From positions 62,001-126,000 of the forward strand of contig VGXF01000002.1 of the NCBI GenBank assembly GCA_016873435.1: a stretch of DNA of 64,000 nt. The letters are read 5' to 3'. A program made the translations under genes and the position numbers. Each line of letters opens with the position of its first letter. The stretch's first letter is position 1. The DNA is from Nitrospira sp. GTDB taxonomy: Bacteria; Nitrospirota; Nitrospiria; Nitrospirales; Nitrospiraceae. Below the pieces are notes generated by a model that was not told where the DNA came from, made no database searches, and was given only the letters and a program-made list of their open reading frames with translations. Shown piece after piece: positions 13,623 through 25,876 of this stretch.

Positions 13623-13651
13623 TTGACAGTATGTTCGCGAATTGGTACAAG
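13623..13651 (+). promoter_or_regulatory. Putative promoter of the porin-urea cluster
   Basis: A perfect TTGACA (13623-13628), 17-bp spacer, then TACAAG (13646-13651, 4 of 6 matches to TATAAT). A transcript starting near 13658 would carry a leader of about 210 nt that includes the terminator/antiterminator at 13711-13764. Confidence 0.55.
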
Positions 13652-13710
13652 TACCCCCGTTTGGTATTACGACTGGGGAGGGACAACGGCGTCCGCGTTC
13701 CCCGGCCTTG

Positions 13711-13764
13711 AAGGGACATTGACGTCCTTTTGGTCCATGAAGGACCAGGAGGGCGTTTTTTTTT
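13711..13764 (+). promoter_or_regulatory. Leader attenuator: terminator and competing antiterminator
   Basis: CGTCCTTTTGGTCC (13723-13736) pairs with 13742-13755 over 14 bp (some G-T pairs) around the loop ATGAA and is followed by nine T residues (13756-13764): a strong intrinsic terminator. Just upstream AAGGGAC (13711-13717) can pair instead with GTCCTTT (13724-13730), breaking the 5' arm of the terminator. The structures exclude each other. The next plus-strand gene upstream ends 1 kb away, so this looks like leader control of the porin/urt/ure genes. Confidence 0.55.
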
Positions 13765-13870: not shown

Positions 13871-15196
13871 ATGGAAGTATGGCAGACAGGTAAGGGAAGG
13901 GCCGCGCGGCGTGCGGTGGCTGCCTGGGCGATCATGGCACTGTTGATGGGGATGGCGGCCGCGCCGTCCAGCGCCCATGCGGACGGCAAGATCAAAAGCG
14001 ACGATCCGGATAAGTGGATCAGCCTGGGACTGGGAATCAAGTCATCGTTCGCCGCCCAAGAAAATGGGGCGGCGAATGGCAGGGGCTACAGCAACCGATT
14101 CGGCATTGACTTCCAGCGTTTTTATCTAAACGGGTCCCTCAACAAATATCTCAAGTTCGAGGTCAACACCGAATGTTTCAACTGCCCCGGCTCCATCAAC
14201 GGATTGGGTTCGGGGGGTAATACCGCCTCGCGGACTGGCACCACGGCCAATTTCTACGGCGGGAATTCCACGCTCGGCTTGCTCGATGCAATCGGCAAGT
14301 TCGAGTACAGCCCGCAGATCAATCTCTGGGTCGGACGCCTACTGGTGACAGGCGAGCGCGGCGAACTCAACGGTCCGTTCTATATGGCGCTCTACGACGG
14401 ATTCAAGACGCCGTTCAACTCCGCGGATTTCAGCGGGAACTTCGGCAAGGGCGGAGCCGGACTCTACGGCCGCGACAACGGCGCGGTGTTTTGGGGGGAA
14501 GTCAACCCAGGGGGCAAGCAGTTGCAATACAGCCTGGGGGTGTACACGGGACTACAATCAGCGAGCGGAGTAGGCCCCAACCAACAGGGCAGCCTGATGT
14601 ATGCGGGACGGTTGACCTACAACTTCCTGAACCCGGAGAAGAATCCTGGCTACTACACCAGCGGGACTTACTATGGGAAGGCTGGCGATATTCTCGCGCT
14701 GGGGGTCGGGGCGAACCATCAGAAGGACGGCGCCGGCACGTTTACCGCCAAGTCCGATTTCACCGCGTTCATCGCGGACCTCCTGTTCGAGAAGGTGCTT
14801 CCGAACGACGGCGTGCTCACGATCAACGCGGAGTACAAGGAGTATTTCGCCAATTACAACAAACAACGTGCGTATAGCGGCGGCTCCGCGGCAGACGGCT
14901 GCTTCTGTATGTTCGATGGTCACTCCTTTACTGCGTATGCGTTATATCTGTTACCGGACACGGTGGGGGTTGGGAAATTCCAGCCCTATGGACGGTATAC
15001 CTGGGTTCAGCCGAGCGAGAGCAGTACACGGAAGGAAACGGAACTCGGCGTGAACTACATCATCGACGGCCACAACGCGCGCGTGTCAGCCTTCTGGCAG
15101 TATGGCGATCTCGCCACCAAGGCCCTGAACTACGCGCCCACGGCGACAGGGGAGCAGGTGCATAGCCTCAAGCTGGCCTTGCAGCTCCAGTACTGA
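13871..15196 (+). CDS. Outer-membrane porin (probable urea/short-chain amide porin)
   Basis: A 441-residue protein with a signal peptide (residues 1-38, ...AIMALLMGMAAAPSSAHA). The mature part has alternating polar/aromatic strands, a disulfide-prone NTECFNCPGSI region near residue 100, and ends in LKLALQLQY, a C-terminal aromatic typical of outer-membrane beta barrels. Its place directly before urtA suggests an FmdC-like porin for urea and short amides; I infer this from context, since barrel sequences show little on substrate. GGGAGG lies 8-13 bp before the ATG. Confidence 0.75.
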   Translation: MEVWQTGKGRAARRAVAAWAIMALLMGMAAAPSSAHADGKIKSDDPDKWISLGLGIKSSFAAQENGAANGRGYSNRFGIDFQRFYLNGSLNKYLKFEVNTECFNCPGSINGLGSGGNTASRTGTTANFYGGNSTLGLLDAIGKFEYSPQINLWVGRLLVTGERGELNGPFYMALYDGFKTPFNSADFSGNFGKGGAGLYGRDNGAVFWGEVNPGGKQLQYSLGVYTGLQSASGVGPNQQGSLMYAGRLTYNFLNPEKNPGYYTSGTYYGKAGDILALGVGANHQKDGAGTFTAKSDFTAFIADLLFEKVLPNDGVLTINAEYKEYFANYNKQRAYSGGSAADGCFCMFDGHSFTAYALYLLPDTVGVGKFQPYGRYTWVQPSESSTRKETELGVNYIIDGHNARVSAFWQYGDLATKALNYAPTATGEQVHSLKLALQLQY

Positions 15197-15259: not shown

Positions 15260-16642
15260 ATGAAATCAAGTCCTGAGTCGACAAAATCTGATCTCGTGAA
15301 AAACGCAGTCGAGACAACAATGACCACAGCGGCCGGCTCGTCGCGCCGCGAGTTTCTGGCGCAAAGCGGGCGGGTCGTGGCGGCGGCTGGGGTCGCTTCG
15401 CTGCTCGGCAACCTGGGCGGATGGGCGTTGTCTTATGCCGCGGACAAGGAGCCGATCAAGATCGGCATCCTGCATTCGCTCTCCGGGACGATGGCGATCA
15501 GCGAAGTCTCGCTGAAGGACGTTGTGCTGATGGCGGTGGAGGAGATCAACGCCAAAGGCGGCGTGATGGGCCGGAAAATCAAGCCTGTTGTCGTCGACCC
15601 AGCGTCCAACTGGGATCTCTTTGCTGAGAAGGCCAAGCAGTTGCTCGTAGTGGACAAGGTGGCTGTGGTGTTCGGCTGCTGGACCTCAGTCAGTCGGAAG
15701 TCCGTGCTACCGGTCTTCGAGAAGAACAATGGACTGCTCTTCTATCCGGTGCAGTACGAGGGCGAGGAGTGCTCCCACAACGTGTTTTACACTGGGGCAG
15801 CGGTGAACCAGCAGGCGATCCCGGCAGTGGAATATCTGATGAGCAAGGAAGGCGGTGGGTACAAGAAGTTCTACTTGCTCGGCACGGACTACGTCTATCC
15901 GCGGACGACGAACAAAATCCTCCGCGCGATGCTGTTGGCCAAGAAGGTGCCGGCTGCCGACATCATGGAGGAGTACACGCCATTCCATCACCAGGATTAC
16001 CAGACGATCGTCGGGAAGGTGAAGAAGTTTGCGGCCGGCGGCAAGGCGGCGGTGATCAGCACGATCAACGGCGACAGCAACGTGCCGTTTTATAAGGAGT
16101 TCGCGAATCAGGGCCTACGCGCGGAAGACGCCCCGATTATGGCGTTCAGCGTAGCGGAGGACGAGTTGCGTGGTATGGACACCACCGCGCTGGTCGGACA
16201 TCTGGCCGCGTGGAACTACTATCAGAGCGTGGACACGCCGCAGAACAAAAAGTTCGTGGCCGACTTCAAGGCTTACTGCAAGAAGAACAATCTGCCAGAT
16301 GGCGAGAAACGCGTCACTGACGATCCAATGGAGGCGGCCTACTTCGGTGTCCATATCTGGAAGCAGGCGGTCGAGAAGGCTGGCTCAACCGAGGTGGACA
16401 AGGTCCGCAAGGCAGTCTATGGAAGCAAGTTCCTCGCGCCGGGCGGCGAAATCAAGATGGACGAAGCCAACCATCACACGAACAAACCGGTGCTGATCGG
16501 TGAAATCCTGAAGGATGGGCAATTCAAGATCGTGTCTCGTTCGAAGGGTCTCGTGAAGCCGGAGCCCTGGAGCGAGTACACCAGCCCTGATAAAGGATGC
16601 GACTGGATCGGTCACCAGGGAACCTATCAGAAGAAGGCATGA
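15260..16642 (+). CDS. urtA: Urea ABC transporter substrate-binding protein UrtA
   Basis: A 460-residue periplasmic binding protein of the UrtA/FmdD type. It has a Tat signal peptide: SSRREFLAQSG (about residues 28-38), then a hydrophobic stretch and ALSYAADKEPIKIGILHSLSGTMA, where the mature receptor begins. UrtA captures urea in the periplasm and delivers it to UrtB-UrtC. AAGGAG at 15248-15253 correctly precedes the ATG at 15260; the GTG at 15242 would be too long. urtB follows with no gap. Confidence 0.95.
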   Translation: MKSSPESTKSDLVKNAVETTMTTAAGSSRREFLAQSGRVVAAAGVASLLGNLGGWALSYAADKEPIKIGILHSLSGTMAISEVSLKDVVLMAVEEINAKGGVMGRKIKPVVVDPASNWDLFAEKAKQLLVVDKVAVVFGCWTSVSRKSVLPVFEKNNGLLFYPVQYEGEECSHNVFYTGAAVNQQAIPAVEYLMSKEGGGYKKFYLLGTDYVYPRTTNKILRAMLLAKKVPAADIMEEYTPFHHQDYQTIVGKVKKFAAGGKAAVISTINGDSNVPFYKEFANQGLRAEDAPIMAFSVAEDELRGMDTTALVGHLAAWNYYQSVDTPQNKKFVADFKAYCKKNNLPDGEKRVTDDPMEAAYFGVHIWKQAVEKAGSTEVDKVRKAVYGSKFLAPGGEIKMDEANHHTNKPVLIGEILKDGQFKIVSRSKGLVKPEPWSEYTSPDKGCDWIGHQGTYQKKA

Positions 16643-18217
16643 ATGGGTGAATCACGACTTTCGGAGGGAATGCTCCTCCGGAGTCTGATCGGTCTAGTTC
16701 TCGTCTGCTTCTGCTGGGGGACGGAGATTGCAGCAGCGGAGGGGCCACGGGTCAAACCGGCGGCCCCTCCGGTGTCTTTAATCGACCAGGCGCTGGCCGA
16801 CCTGTCAAGCGAGGACCAGTCCACACAAGAAGCCGCCGTGCTGTTCCTGAGCGAGCGCGGCGACCCGTCTCTGCTTCTGAAGCTCGAAGCAATCCGCGAC
16901 AGCGCCGACCGGTCCGTCCGACTGGCCCTCAAGCCACTCATGGACCAGCTCAAAAATCGCATTAATCTGTCCAGTCCCGATGTGGATCAGCGCCGCTCGG
17001 CCGCGGCCGACCTTGGGAGCGCAGGCAAGCCGGGTGCAATTCCTTGGCTTGAGGCCGCCCTTGAAAACGAGCCGCATCGCTGGGTGCGGTATGCGATCGA
17101 AGAATCCATCGCGCTGCTCCAGCTGGCCTCTACGAATCCAGATGACCAAATCACCGCCGCGACCAAGCTCGGCGAGCTGCGCAGCCAGAACGCTGTGCCG
17201 GCCCTGAAGGAACTACTCCAGCAGGGGAGTGACGGCAGCGCGACCGCACAGCACCAGGCGGTCGCGAGCGCGGCGCGCGCCGCCATCGAGCAGATCGATA
17301 TCTGGGCTTCCTGGGCCGGCGCCTTTGAGACGATCTTCCGCGGCATCAGTCTCAGTTCCATTTTGTTAATCATGTCGCTCGGGCTGGCCATCGTGTTCGG
17401 CCTCATGGGCGTCATCAACATGGCGCATGGGGAGCTGATGATGGTCGGCGCCTACGCGACCTTCGTTACGCAGGAATGTTTTAAGGCCTATCTGCCGCCG
17501 GGCGCCTTCGATTATTATTTTCTCGTCTCCATGCCGGTGTCGTTTCTGGTAGCGGCCGTGTTTGGTTTGATTCTCGAGGCCACGGTCATCAGCTTTCTCT
17601 ACGGGCGACCGCTGGAAACGATGTTGGCAACCTGGGGCGTGAGTCTCGTGCTGATTCAGGCCGCGCGCGTCTATTTCGGCGATTTGACTTCCGTGGTGGC
17701 GCCAAGCTGGCTGAGCGGCGGCGTGCAGGCCATGGTCGGCGTCTATCTGCCATATAATCGGATTTTTATCATCCTACTCTCGATTCTCTGTGTCTGTGGG
17801 ATTTATTTTCTGCTCTTCCGGACCGGCATCGGCCTGCGCGTCCGCGCGGTGACGCAGAATCGCGACATGAGCTCCTGTCTCGGCATCCCGACGAGAAAAG
17901 TGGACGCGTACACCTTCGCCTTTGGGTCCGGCCTTGCGGGGGTCGCTGGCTGTGCGCTGACGCTGATCGGCAACGTCGAGCCGGGTCTGGGGCAGAACTA
18001 CATCGTGGACTCGTTCATGGTCGTGGTGACTGGGGGAGTCGGCAAGTTGATGGGAACGATCGTGGCGTCGCTTGGCATCGGCGGCTTAAACAAGCTGCTC
18101 GAGCCGAGCTTTGGCGCGGTCTATAGTAAGGTGCTGATCCTTGTGCTTGTCGTTGTCTTCTTGCAGCGTCGCCCGTCCGGATTATTTACTATTAAGGGCC
18201 GTCATGCTGATACCTAA
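16643..18217 (+). CDS. urtB: Urea ABC transporter permease UrtB
   Basis: A 524-residue permease of the LivH/UrtB family. It has a signal-like N-terminus, a soluble HEAT-like repeat region (about residues 40-220, with DVDQRRSAAADLGSAGKPGAIPWLEAAL), then about eight transmembrane helices from about residue 230 (SILLIMSLGLAIVFGLMGVI). MAHGELMMVGAY is the conserved permease motif. Long UrtB proteins with this periplasmic extension are the usual form in urea transporters. The ATG immediately follows the urtA stop. Confidence 0.94.
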   Translation: MGESRLSEGMLLRSLIGLVLVCFCWGTEIAAAEGPRVKPAAPPVSLIDQALADLSSEDQSTQEAAVLFLSERGDPSLLLKLEAIRDSADRSVRLALKPLMDQLKNRINLSSPDVDQRRSAAADLGSAGKPGAIPWLEAALENEPHRWVRYAIEESIALLQLASTNPDDQITAATKLGELRSQNAVPALKELLQQGSDGSATAQHQAVASAARAAIEQIDIWASWAGAFETIFRGISLSSILLIMSLGLAIVFGLMGVINMAHGELMMVGAYATFVTQECFKAYLPPGAFDYYFLVSMPVSFLVAAVFGLILEATVISFLYGRPLETMLATWGVSLVLIQAARVYFGDLTSVVAPSWLSGGVQAMVGVYLPYNRIFIILLSILCVCGIYFLLFRTGIGLRVRAVTQNRDMSSCLGIPTRKVDAYTFAFGSGLAGVAGCALTLIGNVEPGLGQNYIVDSFMVVVTGGVGKLMGTIVASLGIGGLNKLLEPSFGAVYSKVLILVLVVVFLQRRPSGLFTIKGRHADT

Positions 18218-18304
18218 CCTGACGTATCGCGCTGCTTGTGCGGCGTCGCTTGCCTGCGCCGGGTGGCGCCTCACGCCTTTCGCCTCACGTCTGGCGAGGT
18301 AGGT
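18218..18304 (+). repeat. Partial heptad module (urtB-urtC)
   Basis: An 87-bp gap of the usual module size. The right part (18268-18300) has 7-nt units CCTCACG/CCTTTCG/CCTCACG/TCTGGCG. I cannot see a convincing complementary left arm, so this is a half or decayed copy. Confidence 0.4.
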
Positions 18305-19465
18305 ATGCTGACGCTTGGTCCAGGAGAGCACGAGCGGGAGCGGGAGGGGCTTTTTTTCTGGCTCGCTGGATTCGTGCTGTTGGTCGGGCTGCCGTTGCTC
18401 AACGTCCTGCCCGAGACAGATTCATGGCTGCACGTGTCGGACTTCGCGTTGAACCGATTTGGGAAATTTCTTTGCTTTGCAATTCTCGCCATTGGCCTGG
18501 ATCTAATCTGGGGCTACACGGGTATCCTGAGTCTGGGGCACGGTGTGTTCTTCGGTCTGGGCGCCTACGCGATCGGCATGCATTTAATGCTGACCATTGG
18601 ATCCGAAAGCGTCTACGGCAGCGCGCTGCCGGATTTCATGGTGTGGAATCAGGTCAAAGAGCTGCCACTGTTCTGGAAGCCGTTTTATAGTTTTCCCGTA
18701 GCGGTCATCGCGGCGGTGCTGGTGCCGACCGTGGTTGCGTTCGTATTTGGGTTGTTGGCATTTCGCAGCCGGATTAAGGGGGTGTATTTCGCAATCATCA
18801 CGCAGGCGTTGGCGCTTTGTGCCTGGCTGGTGTTCAACCGGAACGAAACGAATCTCGGCGGGACCAACGGCCTGACCGACTTCAAGCAGTTGCTAGGATT
18901 TCGGCTGAGCGAGCCGGGCACGCAGCGGGCGCTCTACATCCTCACCGTGCTCTGCCTCGGCACCGCCTACCTGCTGTGCCGCTGGATCGTGCAGTCCAGA
19001 ACGGGCCGGGTGCTGATTGCGGTCCGCGATAGCGAGCAGCGCGTGCTCTTCTCCGGCTATTCGCCAGCCAACTATAAACTCTTTGTCTTTGTCGTCTCAG
19101 CCGCGCTGGCCGGTCTGGCCGGCGCACTCTACGCGCCGCAGGTCGGCATCATTACGCCGGCGCAGCTTGGTGTCCTGCCGTCGCTTGAAATGGTGATCTG
19201 GGTGGCGGTCGGCGGGCGCGGCACACTGATTGGCGCGGTGGTGGGCGCCGTCGGCGTCAACTGGGGGCGGAGTGTACTGACGAATTACTTTCCGGAACTG
19301 TGGCCCTTTGTGTTGGGTGGACTCTTTGTGGCTGTCGTGTTGCTGGTTCCCGATGGAATTGTCGGGTTGTTCTCACGGATCAAAGCGCAATGGGTCGCGA
19401 GCGGGCTGGGGATTCGAAAAGCGCCCGCAGCATCCGAATCGAAGAATTCGGGTGGGCAATGTTGA
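18305..19465 (+). CDS. urtC: Urea ABC transporter permease UrtC
   Basis: A 386-residue LivM-type permease, pairing with UrtB. About ten hydrophobic segments begin at residue 16 (LFFWLAGFVLLVGLPLL). LDLIWGYTGILSLGHGVFFGLGAYAIG is the classic LivM signature (shown here as GLDLIWGYTGILSLG), and GRGTLIGAVVGA is a C-terminal family motif. I take the ATG at 18305; the frame is open back to 18236, but those codons are heptad repeats. AGGTAGGT precedes the start. Confidence 0.94.
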   Translation: MLTLGPGEHEREREGLFFWLAGFVLLVGLPLLNVLPETDSWLHVSDFALNRFGKFLCFAILAIGLDLIWGYTGILSLGHGVFFGLGAYAIGMHLMLTIGSESVYGSALPDFMVWNQVKELPLFWKPFYSFPVAVIAAVLVPTVVAFVFGLLAFRSRIKGVYFAIITQALALCAWLVFNRNETNLGGTNGLTDFKQLLGFRLSEPGTQRALYILTVLCLGTAYLLCRWIVQSRTGRVLIAVRDSEQRVLFSGYSPANYKLFVFVVSAALAGLAGALYAPQVGIITPAQLGVLPSLEMVIWVAVGGRGTLIGAVVGAVGVNWGRSVLTNYFPELWPFVLGGLFVAVVLLVPDGIVGLFSRIKAQWVASGLGIRKAPAASESKNSGGQC

Positions 19466-19540
19466 GCGAGCAATGATGAATTCCAGATCCGACATTCACA
19501 ATGCATCCTTCGCCCGTCGACATCATACGGCGGGGGCGTT
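19452..19540 (+). repeat. Heptad inverted-repeat module 5 (urtC-urtD)
   Basis: Left units GGGCAAT, GAGCAAT, GATGAAT overlap the last codons of urtC; on the minus strand the right part reads GGGCGAA/GGATGCA/TTGTGAA. GCAATGATGAAT and its partial complement allow a hairpin. The module ends at the urtD GTG. Confidence 0.5.
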
Positions 19541-20323
19541 GTGACGGAACGCGGCTCCATCATTTATCTTGAGGGGGTGACGGTCGACTATGACGGGTTC
19601 AAGGCGCTCAATTGCCTGAACTTCATCGTCAACTATAACGAGCTGCGGGTAGTGATCGGGCCGAATGGCGCCGGCAAGACGACGCTGCTGGACGTGATTT
19701 GCGGCAAGACGAAGCCGGTCTCAGGGCGCGTGATTTTTAGCAAGGACGTGGATCTCCTGCCACTGCGCGAGCATGAAATTGTCGGGCTCGGCATCGGCCG
19801 GAAATTTCAGGCGCCTTCGATCTACGGCAATCTCACCGTGTGGGAGAATCTTGATCTCTCGCTCAAACGGCCGAGCAAGGGCGTCATTGCCACGCTGGTG
19901 GGGACGTCCACGCGGGCTGAGCGCGAACGGATTGAGCAAACGCTCGAAACCATCGGTCTCACGGGGCAGGCACCGAGCCGTGCAGGGTCGCTCTCGCACG
20001 GCCAGAAGCAGTGGCTCGAAATCGGTATGGTCATTTTGCAGGACCCGCAACTGATCATGGTGGATGAGCCGGTAGCCGGCATGACGGACAAGGAGACGGA
20101 GCAGACGGGTGTGCTGCTCCAGTCTCTCTCGGACACGCATGCGATCATTGTGATCGAACACGATATGGAATTTGTCCGGCAGATCGCACGGACCGTCACG
20201 GTCCTGCACGAGGGAGCGGTCATCTGTGAGGGGCCGGTGGACAAGGTGCAGTCCGACCCGAAGGTGCAGGAAATTTATCTCGGGCACCACAAGCCGCAGG
20301 GGAACCATGCTACGGCTCGATAA
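19541..20323 (+). CDS. urtD: Urea ABC transporter ATPase UrtD
   Basis: A 260-residue LivG-type ATPase energising urea uptake. Walker A GPNGAGKTTLLD (about residues 45-56), signature LSHGQKQWLEIGM, Walker B LIMVDEPVAGM and a switch histidine in IVIEHDME. UrtD usually carries 'GQKQWLEI' in the signature, as here. Start is GTG at 19541, abutting a repeat module. Its end overlaps urtE by 17 bp. Confidence 0.95.
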   Translation: MTERGSIIYLEGVTVDYDGFKALNCLNFIVNYNELRVVIGPNGAGKTTLLDVICGKTKPVSGRVIFSKDVDLLPLREHEIVGLGIGRKFQAPSIYGNLTVWENLDLSLKRPSKGVIATLVGTSTRAERERIEQTLETIGLTGQAPSRAGSLSHGQKQWLEIGMVILQDPQLIMVDEPVAGMTDKETEQTGVLLQSLSDTHAIIVIEHDMEFVRQIARTVTVLHEGAVICEGPVDKVQSDPKVQEIYLGHHKPQGNHATAR

Positions 20324-21017
20324 CATCAACGCCTATTACGGCGAAAGCCACATTCTGCGCAACGTCTCACTGGAAGCTGAGGCGGGGCAGGTGCTGTGCC
20401 TCATGGGCCGGAACGGCGTGGGCAAGACAACGACGCTCAAAGCCATCACGGGCCTGCTCGCACCCCGCTCGGGCCGCGTGATGCTGGAGGGGCAGGATGT
20501 AACAAGCCTGACGCCGGACCAGCGGGTCAAGTGCGGGCTGGCCTATGTCCCGCAGGGCCGTGAGATTCTGCCGCATTTGACGGTACGGGAAAATCTTCGG
20601 TTGGGATTCTGGGCGCGGGCGCCCAGATCGAACGGCAGCACGGAATCGCTGGCCTTCGAGGAAGTCTTTGCACTGTTTCCAAAGCTCACGCAAATCATCG
20701 AGCGGGCAGGGGGCGTGCTGAGCGGCGGTGAGCAGCAGCAAGTGGCCATCGCCCGCGCGCTGCTGTCCAAGCCAAAAGTTTTGCTACTCGATGAGCCGAC
20801 CGAGGGCATCCAGCCTAACATCGTGGATCTCATTGAGGAGGTCATTCTCGGCTTCAAGACCCAGCGCCTCTTCACGATCGTGCTGGTCGAGCAGGGCCTG
20901 CAGATGGCCGCGCGGCTTGCTGACGCCTACGTGATTATGGCAAAAGGGGCGGTGGTGGCTTCCGGAAAGACGTCCGAACTGAGCGAAGCGCAAGTCAAGC
21001 AACATCTGGTCATCTAG
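20307..21017 (+). CDS. urtE: Urea ABC transporter ATPase UrtE
   Basis: A 236-residue LivF-type ATPase, partner of UrtD. Walker A GRNGVGKTTTLKAI, signature LSGGEQQQVAIARAL, Walker B VLLLDEPTEGI, switch region IVLVEQGL (Gln in place of the usual His-Asp pair, common in the LivF/UrtE group). I chose the ATG at 20307, giving MLRLDNINAYYGESHILR; the longer frame back to 20172 lies over urtD. The 17-bp overlap with urtD suggests coupled translation. Confidence 0.95.
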   Translation: MLRLDNINAYYGESHILRNVSLEAEAGQVLCLMGRNGVGKTTTLKAITGLLAPRSGRVMLEGQDVTSLTPDQRVKCGLAYVPQGREILPHLTVRENLRLGFWARAPRSNGSTESLAFEEVFALFPKLTQIIERAGGVLSGGEQQQVAIARALLSKPKVLLLDEPTEGIQPNIVDLIEEVILGFKTQRLFTIVLVEQGLQMAARLADAYVIMAKGAVVASGKTSELSEAQVKQHLVI

Positions 21018-21026
21018 GAGCCCGCT

Positions 21027-21329
21027 ATGCATCTCACGCCGCGCGAGCAGGAAAAGCTTCTCATTTACGTGGCCGCTCAACTGGCCAAAGATCGCAAGGC
21101 CCGCGGGCTCAAATTGAACTATCCAGAAGCCGTGGCCTACCTAACGGCCGAAATTCTCGAAGGTATCCGAGACGGCCGTTCCGTGGCCGATCTCATGAGC
21201 TACGGCGCGACACTTCTATCCAGACAAGACGTCCAATCCGGCGTGCCGGAAATGCTAGCCGAATTGCAAGTCGAAGGAACTTTTCCAGACGGCACGAAAC
21301 TCGTCACGGTCCATCTTCCAATTAGATAA
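21027..21329 (+). CDS. ureA: Urease gamma subunit UreA
   Basis: A 100-residue urease gamma subunit, full family length. [20 protein letters not shown] at the start, [14 protein letters not shown], then a C-terminal [18 protein letters not shown] are all family hallmarks. It joins UreB and UreC in the (UreABC)3 holoenzyme. AGGAG precedes the ATG, 9 bp after urtE, so transporter and urease are probably one transcript. Confidence 0.97.
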
Positions 21330-21380
21330 ACATTTACTTTCAGTTCATCCGTTAAAACTATGTTTTATTGAGGTGGATAA

Positions 21381-21848
21381 ATGGCGAAGAAGGCAGTCCA
21401 GAGTCGTGGCAAGGCTTCAAGGAAAGTTCCGGTAGCAAGCCGACCGACAGGCTCTCTCCAGCCGGCTAATGTGATTCCAGGTGAGGTGATTCTTGGCACG
21501 GACGATGTCGTAGCGCTGGAGGGGCGACCGACGGTCGAGGTGACCGTGGCCAACACCGGCGACCGGCCCATTCAGGTTGGTTCGCACTGCCACTTCTTCG
21601 AAGTCAACCGCGCGCTACGGTTCAAGCGCGAGCAAGCCTTCGGGTTCCGACTCCAAGTCCCGGCCGGCACGGCGGTGCGGTTTGAGCCCGGGGAGGAAAA
21701 GCGTGTGACGCTCGTGGCTTTTGGCGGCAATCGTATCGCGTATGGCATCAATGGACTGACCGGCGGCAAGCTGGACGATCCGCACGTGCGCGCGAAGGCG
21801 TTGGCGCAGGCGGCCGCACGCGGATTTATGGGAACGGGTAAGGCGTAG
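21381..21848 (+). CDS. ureB: Urease beta subunit UreB with basic N-terminal tail
   Basis: A 155-residue urease beta subunit. The core begins at about residue 30 ([38 protein letters not shown]...) and ends after the [12 protein letters not shown] motif. Bacterial UreB is commonly 101-136 residues, so the basic, Ser/Lys-rich tail of about 28 residues ([20 protein letters not shown]...) is extra. GAGGTG precedes the ATG at 21381, so the long start is likely real. A 51-bp AT-rich gap separates it from ureA. Confidence 0.96.
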
Positions 21849-21920
21849 GATGAGGCTAAGGGGGGAGTTTGGGGCGTTGCTGAACTGTGACTTCAACCCC
21901 AGTCGTCTGCAGGAGGTTGT

Positions 21921-23645
21921 ATGAAAATCCCACGACGCCAATATGCGGATTTGTACGGCCCGACAGTCGGCGACCGTATCCGGCTGGCTGATACGCAGCT
22001 GCTCATCGAGATTGAGCGTGACCTGACCGTTCCTGGTGAGGAGGCCAAGTTCGGCGGCGGTAAAGTCATCCGCGACGGGATGGGGCAGTCGCCGACCGTG
22101 ACGAGGAAGAGTGGCGGGCTGGATACCGTCATCACCAACGCGATCATCCTGGATTATTGGGGCATTGTGAAGGCAGACATCGGCATTCGCGACGGCCGTA
22201 TCGTTGGCATCGGCAAGGCGGGTAATCCCGATCTGATGCCGGGCGTGACGAAGGGGATGGAGATCAGCGTCGGGACGGAAGTCATTTCAGCTGAAGGGAA
22301 GATCGTCACCGCGGGTGGTATCGACACGCACATCCATTTCATCTGTCCGCAAATCATTCACGAGGGACTGGCCAGCGGGCTGACGACGCTGATCGGCGGC
22401 GGCACAGGGCCTGCGACCGGCACCAACGCCACGACCTGCACGCCGGGTCCTTGGAACATCTACCGCATGCTGGAGGCAGCGGACGGATTCCCGGTCAATC
22501 TCGGTTTTTTCGGCAAGGGCAATTCGTCGCTGCCTGAGGGATTGAACGAGCAGATCGAGGCGGGGGCGATCGGGTTGAAGCTGCACGAGGATTGGGGGAC
22601 GACGCCGGCGGCGATCTCGACCTGCCTCGATGTGGCTGAACACTACGACGTGCAGGTAGCAATCCACACGGACACGATCAACGAGGCCGGCTTCGTCGAG
22701 GATACGATTAAAGCCATGGCCGGGCGCACAATCCATTCCTTCCACACGGAAGGCGCGGGCGGCGGCCATGCGCCGGACATCATTAAAGTCTGCGGCGAGC
22801 CAAACGTTCTGCCGTCCTCGACCAATCCGACGATGCCGTTTACGGTCAATACAATGGATGAGCATCTCGACATGCTCATGGTCTGCCACCATCTGAATCC
22901 GCGTGTGCCGGAGGATATCGCCTTCGCCGAGTCGCGTATCCGGCGCGAGACGATCGCCGCTGAGGACATCCTGCACGACATGGGGGCGATCAGCATCATG
23001 TCGTCGGATTCACAAGCGATGGGGCGCGTGGGCGAGGTGATCCTTCGTACCTGGCAGACGGCGCACAAGATGAAGGTGCAGCGCGGGGCACTCGCGCAAG
23101 ACGGCAAGAACGGCGGCAAACACCACGATAACTTCCGCGCCAAGCGCTACGTGGCTAAGTACACGATCAATCCGGCGATCGCGCACGGTATCGCGCATGA
23201 AGTCGGCTCGGTAGAGACTGGCAAACTAGCTGACCTTGTGATTTGGCGCGCAGCCTTCTTCGGCGTGAAGCCCGAGATGGTCATCAAGGGCGGCTTCCCC
23301 ATGTCGGCTGCGATGGGCGATCCGAACGCGTCCATTCCAACGCCGCAGCCCGTCATCACGAGACCTATGTTTGGCAGCTTCGGCCGCGCCCTCTACAGTA
23401 CTAGTGTCACGTTCGTTTCGAGCGTGGCACTCGACCGCGAGGTACCCAAGACGCTGGGATTGCAGAAGCGTCTCTCGGCCGTGAAGAAGTGCCGTGGCAT
23501 CGGCAAGCGCGATCTCAAGTTGAATGACGCGCTGCCGCGCATCGACGTGGACCCGGAAACCTATGTCGTAAAGGCAGACGGGCACATCTTACAGTGCGAG
23601 CCGCTCGCTGTATTGCCCATGGCACAACGGTATTTCCTCTTTTAG
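21921..23645 (+). CDS. ureC: Urease alpha subunit UreC (catalytic)
   Basis: The 574-residue catalytic subunit, which hydrolyses urea to ammonia and carbamate. Nickel ligands and catalytic residues are all visible: THIHFICPQ (first His pair), GLKLHEDWG (the lysine that is carbamylated to bridge the two nickel ions), [10 protein letters not shown] and [15 protein letters not shown] (second site), MVCHHLNP (catalytic His of the flap), and [12 protein letters not shown] (aspartate ligand). AGGAGG precedes the ATG. The 72-bp gap from ureB is purine-rich and may be a decayed repeat module. Confidence 0.98.
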
Positions 23646-23665
23646 CGTAAGGCAGAAGCAGCCCG

Positions 23666-24352
23666 ATGGACACCGCATCTCTGGTGCAGGGACTTCGGTT
23701 TGTCGACAGCTTCTTTCCGTCCGGCGGATTTGCTTTTTCGTCCGGGCTGGAAGCGGCGGTGCAGGGTGGAGCTGTGCGCAATGCAGACGATCTGTTCCGC
23801 TACGTGGAGGATCTACTGCGCAACGGGATAGGCCGTCGTGACGCGGTTGCGGTGGCAAAGGCCGGTGACGCACTGCGGGCGAACAAGCTGACCGCGATTC
23901 TTGAAATAGACCGCGAGCTGAGTGCCATGAAAATCGGTCGGGAGTCCCGTCTGGCCAGCCGGCAGGTAGGTAAGCAAATTATTCGCATTGCCGCGGAGCA
24001 GATTGAGGGACATCCGGTTCTGTCCCATTATCTGGCTGCGGTGGAGACGGACCGAACGCCAGGCCATGCGGCAGTCGCGCTCGGGCTGACGCTGTCTGCG
24101 GTCGGGTGGAAGAAGGACGATGCCGTAGGGGCCTTTCTCTACCAGGCGGCAACGGGATTCATAGCCGCGGCGGTGAAGCTGTTGCCGATCGGCCAGCGCG
24201 AAGGGCAGCGACTGTTGCATGAATGGACGCCGCTGATTGTGGAAATTAGCGCAGCGGCTTGCCGGGAAGCATCCATGGCGTCCTGGTCTCCCGTTCAGGA
24301 CATCTATGCCATGAAGCACCGCTGGCTGGAATCGCGGCTATTCAGGAGTTAA
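23666..24352 (+). CDS. ureF: Urease accessory protein UreF
   Basis: A 228-residue UreF, which forms the UreDFG chaperone complex that loads nickel into apo-urease and acts as GTPase partner of UreG. The opening [23 protein letters not shown] is the family signature (shown here in part as [16 protein letters not shown]). All-helical profile as expected. It follows ureC by 20 bp. Confidence 0.94.
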
Positions 24353-24354
24353 TC

Positions 24355-25029
24355 ATGCATCGCGGCGACGAGCATTTTATGGGCAGCGGGAAAACAATGC
24401 GGGCACGGGAAAAGCATATTCCGGTCATTGGCGTGGGTGGGCCGGTCGGCTCCGGAAAAACAGCCTTGGTGGAGGCGCTCTGCCGGAAGCTGCGTGACAA
24501 GTACAGCCTTGCCGTTGTGACGAACGATATCTTTACGAAAGAAGATGCGGAATTTCTGACGCGCCGGGGCGCGTTGCCCCAAGACCGGATCCTTGGTGTT
24601 GAAACCGGCGGCTGCCCTCATACGGCAATACGCGAAGACGCGTCGCACAATCAGGAGGCGCTCGACGAGCTGCTTAAGCGCCATCCGGACGTCGAGCTGA
24701 TGTTCGTCGAAAGCGGCGGGGACAATCTAGCCGCGACCTTTAGCCCCGAACTGGCTGACAAGGTTATCTATGTGATTGACGTGGCGGCGGGCGACAAGAT
24801 TCCCCGCAAGGGGGGGCCCGGCATCACGCGTTCCGACCTGTTGGTGATCAACAAGATCGATCTGGCTCTGCATGTGGGCGCTGATTTGTCCGTGATGGAC
24901 CGCGACAGCAAAAAGATGCGCGGGGCGCTCCCGTTCATTTTCACGAACTTGCACAGTAGTGAAGGGTTGGACAGCGTGGTGGAATGGGTTGAGCAACTCG
25001 TGAGGAGCTACGCGCACCACCATGCTTGA
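24355..25029 (+). CDS. ureG: Urease accessory GTPase UreG
   Basis: A 224-residue SIMIBI-class GTPase that supplies GTP hydrolysis for nickel delivery to urease. P-loop [14 protein letters not shown], the nickel-binding CPH motif in [14 protein letters not shown], and the NKIDLA base-recognition motif are all present. I chose the ATG at 24355, preceded by AGGAG; the frame remains open upstream over ureF. The short N-terminus ([12 protein letters not shown]) has only two His, unlike His-rich forms. Stop overlaps ureD by 8 bp. Confidence 0.96.
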
Positions 25030-25876
25030 GGCGGTTGCCGATACGTCGGAAGTCGGTCGTGTTGGCGCGCTCACGCTGGACTATGCCCGGCAGGGCAATC
25101 GCACGGTTCTGACGCGGTCCCGGTGCTCCACGCCGTGGCATTTTTCTCCGCCCATCGAACTCGACGACAGCGCCTGCATCTACACGCCGCTGCTCAATCC
25201 CTCTGGGGGAGTGGTCGGAGGAGATCGGCTCTCCGTGATGGTCTCCCTTGGTCCGCGGGCCCACGTGTTGATTTCAACACCATCGGCCACGCGGGTCTAC
25301 CGTTCGCTTGCGGCGACATCCGTCCAATCAGTCGAGCTCTCCGTTGGCCCCGATGCCATTCTTGAGTGGATGCCCGAGGTGACGATTCCCTATGCTGGCG
25401 CACGCTTCAAACAGACTATTCATGCAAAGGTTGCGCGGGGCGGAACGCTGTTGCTCTGGGATGCCATGGCGTCCGGGCGTATGGCACGGGGGGAGCGGTG
25501 GGCCTTCACGAGTTTCGAGAATGAAATCCGGATTGACCAAGTATCTGGAAAATCGGTGCTGGAACGGTATCACTTGAATTCCGCCGCCGCCGGCAGTGGC
25601 TTGCTGAACGAATGGGACTATGTCGGGTCGCTGTTCCTGTTCGGTGATGGAATAGATACCGAGCGTCTGAAGCGGCTTGAAGAGCAACTGGTGGTCGTTC
25701 TGGATAAGCGATCGTGCGCGGTGCTGGGCGGGGTGTCTGAGCCGGATGCGCCCGGTATCGCCGTCAAGCTTATGGCGAAGTCAGCACCGGATTTGAGTGA
25801 AACGCTGGACGAGCTTTGGCTGGCGATCCGCGCGACTCTCTGGAATCTTCCCAGGCCGGCGCTGCGTCGGTATTAG
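25022..25876 (+). CDS. ureD: Urease accessory protein UreD (UreH)
   Basis: A 284-residue UreD/UreH, the scaffold through which nickel reaches the active site. Family markers: [43 protein letters not shown] and the [11 protein letters not shown] segment. It overlaps ureG and closes the urease cluster, and meets miaB tail to tail with a 4-bp overlap. No ureE is present in the window. Confidence 0.94.

What the first reader, a model, noticed from the sequence alone, without database searches (positions are those of the whole stretch)
13623..13764. Possible riboswitch-like attenuator ahead of the urea uptake and urease cluster
A promoter-like TTGACA at 13623 is followed by a leader with a 14-bp terminator stem (13723-13755) and nine T residues, and by an exclusive antiterminator (13711-13717 with 13724-13730). 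An upstream stem around GGGGA...TCCCC (about 13675-13703) could be an aptamer. I do not recognise a guanidine, glycine or other known riboswitch. If real, this single switch could control porin, UrtABCDE and urease, 12 genes over 12 kb.
Basis: partly seen in the sequence, partly recalled or inferred. Interest (0 to 1): 0.72.

Follow-up and report, generated by a model that had tools for sequence, protein, structure and literature searches.

The report
Protein-controlled RNA switch for urea genes
The urea-uptake and urease genes of this Nitrospira-type bacterium sit behind a built-in transcription stop that a nitrogen-sensing RNA-binding (ANTAR) protein probably lifts; the switch type is known, but its use across Nitrospira, and its loss or shrinkage in Nitrospira that burn ammonia for energy, appears to be unreported.

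Summary
The "aptamer" stem and the antiterminator are two hairpins, each topped by a six-base loop with A at position 1 and G at position 4, and the second shares its 3' arm with the terminator. That is the target RNA of ANTAR antitermination proteins (NasR, AmiR, EutV). The genome encodes exactly one ANTAR protein (GAF-GAF-ANTAR). A covariance model finds exactly three such leaders in the genome: porin-urtABCDE-ureABCFGD (the window), nadE-amt-glnB-glnD-glnA (directly behind the ANTAR gene) and cynS. Relatives keep the leader ahead of urt, with strong covariation and near-perfect sigma-70 promoters. Leader and ANTAR protein occur together in 102 of 175 family genomes and are both absent in 62. 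Genomes of the main group carrying ammonia monooxygenase have lost both while keeping urtA. Filed as a new member of a known kind. Likely input: nitrogen status, possibly glutamine through GAF domains resembling those of EI-Ntr (inferred, untested). No RNA or protein experiment was done.

The parts
13623..13628 (+). -35 promoter hexamer TTGACA
   Evidence: read; same hexamer at the same distance in nearly all relatives
13646..13651 (+). -10 hexamer TACAAG (17-nt spacer); start of transcription expected near 13658 (inferred)
   Evidence: 10 of 12 matches here; 52 of 70 leaders reach 10 or more of 12 against 13 of 989 control stretches
13673..13705 (+). P1 hairpin, the first ANTAR-type hairpin; hexaloop AACGGC at 13685-13690 (A1, G4), closing pairs AC/GU, bulge 13695-13697
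   Evidence: covariation
13711..13730 (+). P2 hairpin, the antiterminator; hexaloop AUUGAC at 13718-13723 (A1, G4); its 3' arm is part of the terminator's 5' arm
   Evidence: near-invariant core GGAC[RNNGNC]GUCCU in relatives
13721..13764 (+). intrinsic terminator: 16-pair stem 13721-13736/13742-13757, then nine T (13756-13764)
   Evidence: 9 of 15 modelled pairs show double changes
13871..15196 (+). first controlled gene: putative outer-membrane porin (weak match to ExtI-type porin, below its cut-off)
   Evidence: a gene of this size directly follows the leader in most relatives
15260..16642 (+). urtA, urea ABC transporter binding protein
   Evidence: TIGR03407, 589 bits, over its cut-off
16643..21017 (+). 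urtB (N-terminal HEAT repeats), urtC, urtD, urtE
   Evidence: urtC-E named from order and sequence
21027..25876 (+). ureA, ureB, ureC, ureF, ureG, ureD (urease and accessory genes)
   Evidence: ORFs; named from gene order and sequence, not scanned individually

Best explanation
The leader is an ANTAR-target transcription attenuator. RNA polymerase starts at a strong sigma-70-type promoter (about 13658) and first makes hairpins P1 and P2. By default the P2 3' arm is captured by the longer terminator stem and transcription stops at the nine U. When the cell's single GAF-GAF-ANTAR protein (encoded elsewhere in the genome, directly upstream of a second leader and nadE-amt-glnB-glnD-glnA) is active, its dimer binds the two hexaloops, holds P2 and so blocks the terminator, and the polymerase reads on into porin-urtABCDE-ureABCFGD. 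The same protein would switch the ammonium and cyanate operons together, making one nitrogen-assimilation regulon. Shown here by sequence: anatomy, covariation, genome-wide regulon, co-occurrence with ANTAR. Inferred: binding, antitermination, and the signal (low nitrogen, perhaps low glutamine sensed by the GAF domains).
For: Two hexaloop hairpins with A1/G4, P2 overlapping the terminator, as defined by Ramesh 2012 (PMC3369931). Covariation: 129 double-change cells against 38.5 in shuffles, 0 of 500. One ANTAR protein in the genome, GAF-GAF-ANTAR, keeping EutV RNA-contact residues R142, K143, K149, E160, M172, R175 and an aromatic at 164 (alignment; residue roles). Exactly three leaders in the genome; next hit E = 4.8. 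31 of 52 ANTAR genes have a leader under 500 nt downstream, 46 within 4 kb. ANTAR and leader over 175 family genomes: 102 both, 62 neither, 9 leader only, 2 ANTAR only. In the relatives set urtA is preceded by a leader in most ANTAR genomes and in none of the complete ANTAR-less ones. Targets elsewhere are nitrogen genes. N. moscoviensis fed only nitrite as N source transcribes urea, cyanase and amt genes without urea or cyanate (PMC6606698).
Against: No expression, binding or probing data for this organism. Two of the three own-genome leaders have G instead of A at loop position 1 in one hairpin; EutV makes no specific contact to A1, so this is tolerable but unproven. Many relatives have 20-40 nt between P1 and P2, beyond what EutV tolerates unless the spacer folds; the window's own linker is about 5 nt. 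Four of eleven EutV RNA-contact residues differ (K147Q, R168Q, N173D, R177S). The model R1 was built partly from these same leaders, so its E-values for them are inflated. Co-occurrence counts related genomes, so p-values overstate the number of independent events.
Confidence: 0.93

Rival explanations
1. A metabolite-binding riboswitch (urea, ammonium, glutamine, guanidine, nickel) with the upstream stem as aptamer.
For: Terminator and exclusive antiterminator are present; an upstream structured element exists.
Against: No Rfam match even at relaxed threshold. The upstream element is a simple hairpin whose sequence is free outside the hexaloop and closing pairs. The same element precedes amt, cynS, nitrate/nitrite-type transporters and NifA-like genes, and disappears with the ANTAR gene although urtA stays.
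Confidence: 0.02
2. A constitutive terminator or simple promoter-proximal attenuator without a dedicated regulator (or controlled by another protein, or by leader translation).
For: The terminator alone would lower expression; the control is not demonstrated experimentally.
Against: Both hexaloop hairpins are kept by selection, not only the terminator: P1 covaries independently. I saw no open reading frame starting in 13658-13720 by eye, so translation-coupled attenuation is unlikely. Co-occurrence with ANTAR.
Confidence: 0.04
3. Nitrogen control acts mainly at the promoter (NtrC/sigma-54 or another DNA-binding regulator) and the leader is a minor trim.
For: NifA-like sigma-54 activators occur in relatives, some themselves behind a leader.
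Against: The promoters are near-consensus sigma-70 sites, as expected if control lies after initiation; I saw no sigma-54 site by eye in the upstream sequence (not scanned by tool).
Confidence: 0.06

Closest known systems
EutV ANTAR system of Enterococcus faecalis (eut leaders; PMC3369931, PMC8934654)
   Same: Two short hairpins with hexaloops A1/G4, P2 overlapping an intrinsic terminator, linker of a few nt, several leaders per genome, ANTAR protein with matching RNA-contact residues.
   Different: The sensor here is GAF-GAF, not a phosphorylated receiver domain; loops tolerate G1; many relatives have long spacers; targets are urea, ammonium and cyanate genes.
NasR-nasF of Klebsiella and NasT-nas/nap of proteobacteria
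   Same: ANTAR antitermination serving nitrogen metabolism.
   Different: NasR senses nitrate through its own sensor domain and NasT is freed by NasS on nitrate/nitrite (PMC3795266, abstract); here the protein is GAF-GAF-ANTAR with unknown ligand and controls a multi-operon regulon.
AmiR-amiE of Pseudomonas aeruginosa
   Same: ANTAR antitermination ahead of genes that release ammonia.
   Different: AmiR is held by AmiC, an amide-binding relative of UrtA-type proteins (from my own knowledge); no such partner gene was seen next to the ANTAR gene here.
ANTAR-RNA regulons predicted by covariance search in other bacteria (Desulfotomaculum, Pelobacter; PMC3369931)
   Same: Leaders predicted before urea transporters, ammonium transporters, PII, nitrate/nitrite transporters and nitrogenase genes.
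   Different: The main text does not mention Nitrospira, Nitrospirae or Leptospirillum; its supplementary tables could not be read.

Membership tests
ANTAR-target antiterminator RNA | two tandem hairpins with six-base loops, A at position 1 and G at position 4, at least 3 bp each | tested here: met
   P1 AACGGC, P2 AUUGAC; 4 inner (12 total) and 7-8 bp
ANTAR-target antiterminator RNA | P2 overlaps and excludes an intrinsic terminator | tested here: met
   13724-13730 is shared by P2 and the terminator stem
ANTAR-target antiterminator RNA | short linker between P1 and P2 (5-12 nt in E. faecalis eut) | tested here: met
   4-5 nt for the window leader, at the edge of the range; many relatives have longer spacers
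ANTAR-target antiterminator RNA | cognate ANTAR protein in the same genome, co-occurring across genomes | tested here: met
   one protein in own genome; 102 both / 2 ANTAR only / 9 leader only / 62 neither over 175 genomes
ANTAR-target antiterminator RNA | structure kept by compensatory change | tested here: met
   P1: 5 of 7 pairs; terminator: 9 of 15 pairs
ANTAR-target antiterminator RNA | binding by the ANTAR dimer and protein-dependent read-through | not testable with these tools
   needs gel shift and transcription assays
ANTAR protein (GAF-GAF-ANTAR, G000:C5) | ANTAR domain with RNA-contact residues | tested here: met
   PF03861 over cut-off; 6 of 11 EutV contacts identical, Tyr164 to Phe as in Rv1626, 4 others changed
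Known Rfam riboswitch classes | match to a covariance model at gathering score | tested here: not met

The most novel reading that the evidence does not exclude
A GAF-GAF-ANTAR attenuation regulon was the ancestral nitrogen-assimilation control of Nitrospira-type bacteria and was dismantled when lineages became complete ammonia oxidisers: once urea and ammonia are fuel, their uptake genes escape nitrogen-sufficiency shut-off. In genus group g6, 48 of 49 genomes with ammonia monooxygenase lack the ANTAR protein and 47 of 49 lack any leader; in group g9, ammonia oxidisers keep the ANTAR protein but average 1.0 leaders against 3.4 in non-oxidisers (genomes at least 90% complete), and the two I looked at keep only the amt leader.
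Probability: 0.45. Interest if true: 0.72.

Novelty: new member of a known kind. Interest (0 to 1): 0.52.

Why it matters
It gives a concrete, testable mechanism for nitrogen control in Nitrospira, where a 2025 comparative-genomics study of the order does not mention ANTAR at all, and supplies a predicted target list (urea, ammonium, cyanate, nitrate/nitrite-type transport genes). It would be one of the first functional assignments for ANTAR proteins with GAF sensors; in 2012 none had been characterised. The loss in ammonia-oxidising members suggests that rewiring of nitrogen control went with the switch from nitrogen as nutrient to nitrogen as fuel.

Tried and rejected
Rfam search at gathering and relaxed thresholds: nothing relevant. 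'Urea riboswitch' in the paper library: no hits. Leader-peptide attenuation and sigma-54 promoter: nothing seen by eye in the sequence (not scanned systematically). Terminator serving an upstream gene: excluded by gene orientation. Papers joining Nitrospira or comammox with ANTAR or antitermination: none relevant. Searches failed on argument limits or coordinates; 14, 31 and 68 were repeated correctly, 84 (comparison of two ANTAR proteins) was dropped as unnecessary. The simple pattern GGACNNNGNCGTCCT alone is not specific (6 hits against 6 for its reversed control); the covariance model is needed. For G209, G216, G228 and some other g6 genomes lacking ANTAR but also lacking an amoA-type hit I could not tell whether they are ammonia oxidisers with a missing contig.

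Full report
OBSERVATION. The TTGACA at 13623 has a -10 hexamer TACAAG 17 nt downstream; relatives carry TATAAG or TATAAA at the same place, and 52 of 70 leaders score 10 or more of 12 to the sigma-70 consensus against 13 of 989 random stretches. The terminator spans 13721-13757 with 16 pairs and nine T, the longest stem of 26 terminator-like sites in 20 kb. The 121-nt leader folds better than shuffles (z -3.1).

ANATOMY. Folding the transcript up to 13731, before the 3' arm of the terminator exists, gives two main hairpins: P1 (13673-13705) and P2 (13710-13731), separated by 4-5 nt. Each carries a six-base loop: AACGGC and AUUGAC. Both have A at position 1 and G at position 4, and both are closed by A-U and C-G pairs. 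P2 shares 13724-13730 with the terminator, so the two exclude each other. Two tandem hairpins with A1/G4 hexaloops, the second overlapping a terminator, is the definition of an ANTAR-protein target (Ramesh 2012, PMC3369931). By shuffling, an AC[A..G..]GU hairpin in the upstream 80 nt arises in 0.4% of cases, and the dual motif is found once in the window against 0.05 per shuffled window.

RELATIVES. A DNA search found the P2-terminator part in 27 of 61 relatives, several with two copies. Forty-four leaders were extracted and 42 aligned. P1 shows double changes in 5 of 7 pairs and the terminator in 9 of 15; overall 129 double-change cells against 38.5 in shuffles, 0 of 500, and every slid version is far lower. 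Two inner P1 pairs never vary, but my extraction required them, so they say nothing. The loop is RNNGNN: A1 in most, G1 in the P2 of many amt leaders and in the P1 of some urea leaders. EutV does not contact A1 specifically (PMC8934654), so G1 is plausible.

THE REGULATOR. PF03861 finds one ANTAR protein in this genome, at C5:94826-96163, minus strand. It is GAF-GAF-ANTAR. Its ANTAR domain aligns to Rv1626, EutV and NasR. Using the EutV contacts, R142, K143, K149, E160, M172 and R175 are kept, Y164 is F as in Rv1626, and K147, R168, N173, R177 differ.

THE REGULON. With a covariance model of P1 plus terminator the genome has exactly three strong hits and then nothing better than E = 4.8: the window leader; one between the ANTAR gene and nadE-amt-glnB-glnD-glnA; and one ahead of cynS. 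The model contains these leaders, so the E-values are inflated, but the gap to the next hit is not explained by that. In relatives the leaders precede porin-urtA-urtB, nadE-amt, BBP2 porin-amt, amt-glnB, cynS, NMT1-type substrate-binding proteins (nitrate/nitrite/cyanate-type transport), a nitrite transporter with cynS and ferredoxin-nitrite reductase, and NifA-like activators. All but a few unclassified cases are nitrogen genes.

CO-OCCURRENCE. Of 52 ANTAR genes in the relatives, 31 have a leader less than 500 nt downstream on the same strand and 46 within 4 kb. Among relatives at least 90% complete, 41 of 45 have the ANTAR protein and the same 41 have leaders. Over 175 genomes of the family: 102 both, 62 neither, 9 leader only, 2 ANTAR only. 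Most leader-only genomes are incomplete; G207 and G305 are not, and may hold relics. The genomes are related, so this is fewer independent events than the p-value suggests. urtA remains in genomes without ANTAR and leader (G024, G034, G039, G042, G045), so the leader does not simply travel with the operon. Named loci confirm that the group is Nitrospira and relatives; 27 of 80 fetched urtA loci carry the leader upstream.

AMMONIA OXIDISERS. Ammonia monooxygenase (PF02461) occurs in 61 of 175 family genomes, in two genus groups. In g6, 48 of 49 such genomes lack ANTAR and 47 of 49 lack leaders; the one with ANTAR, G264, is 54% complete. In g9 all 12 keep ANTAR but the nine that are at least 90% complete average 1.0 leaders against 3.4 in 11 without the enzyme; in two examined (G181, G326) the remaining leader precedes amt. 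A different group (g25) lost both without the enzyme, and some g6 genomes lack all three, so the link is suggestive, with perhaps two supporting events.

SIGNAL (INFERENCE). The first GAF domain is, among solved structures, closest to a conserved domain protein (3e0y) and to the GAF domains of EI-Ntr/PtsP-type phosphotransferases (3ci6, 3trc). The EI-Ntr GAF domain binds glutamine in other bacteria (PMC4848567). A glutamine-low or nitrogen-low signal is therefore my preferred guess, at about even odds. It agrees with N. moscoviensis transcribing urea, cyanase and amt genes without urea or cyanate when nitrite is the only nitrogen source (PMC6606698); that paper does not discuss attenuation and I did not check that strain's leader.

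VERDICT. A real, conserved attenuator of the ANTAR class, predicted to depend on a protein; not a riboswitch. New member of a known kind, with an apparently undescribed lineage-wide regulon. No experiment was performed.

Noticed in passing
G008:C11:85910-86113, G011:C1:1731423-1731626, G013:C8:79146-79352, G015:C15:11820-12029, G029:C1:1309516-1309723 and others: Two complete ANTAR leaders in tandem; in those whose downstream gene was checked (G008, G011, G015) they precede NMT1-type substrate-binding protein genes. A double terminator may sharpen control.
   Followed up: partly
G022:C2:127947-175012: Seven ANTAR leaders within 47 kb next to the ANTAR gene at 176162: a compact nitrogen island.
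   Followed up: no
L031-L041 (leaders behind ANTAR genes); G000:C5:94669-94774: The P2 loop of many amt-type leaders starts with G (GAUGAC), which could pair with C6 and shrink the loop to four bases; could tune affinity.
   Followed up: no
window 22068-22366, minus strand: Rfam 5_ureB_sRNA (RF02514) scores 98.8 bits antisense inside ureC; probably reflects coding conservation of urease rather than a real antisense RNA.
   Followed up: no
window 16643-18217: UrtB carries N-terminal HEAT repeats before the permease domain.
   Followed up: no
G207:C17:157076-157173 and G305: Leader retained in nearly complete g6 genomes without an ANTAR protein: possible relics.
   Followed up: partly
phylum sample, G199, G201, G214, G221: Weak leader hits (E 4e-5 to 7e-4) in other families of the class that also have ANTAR proteins, suggesting the regulon may be older than the order.
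   Followed up: no
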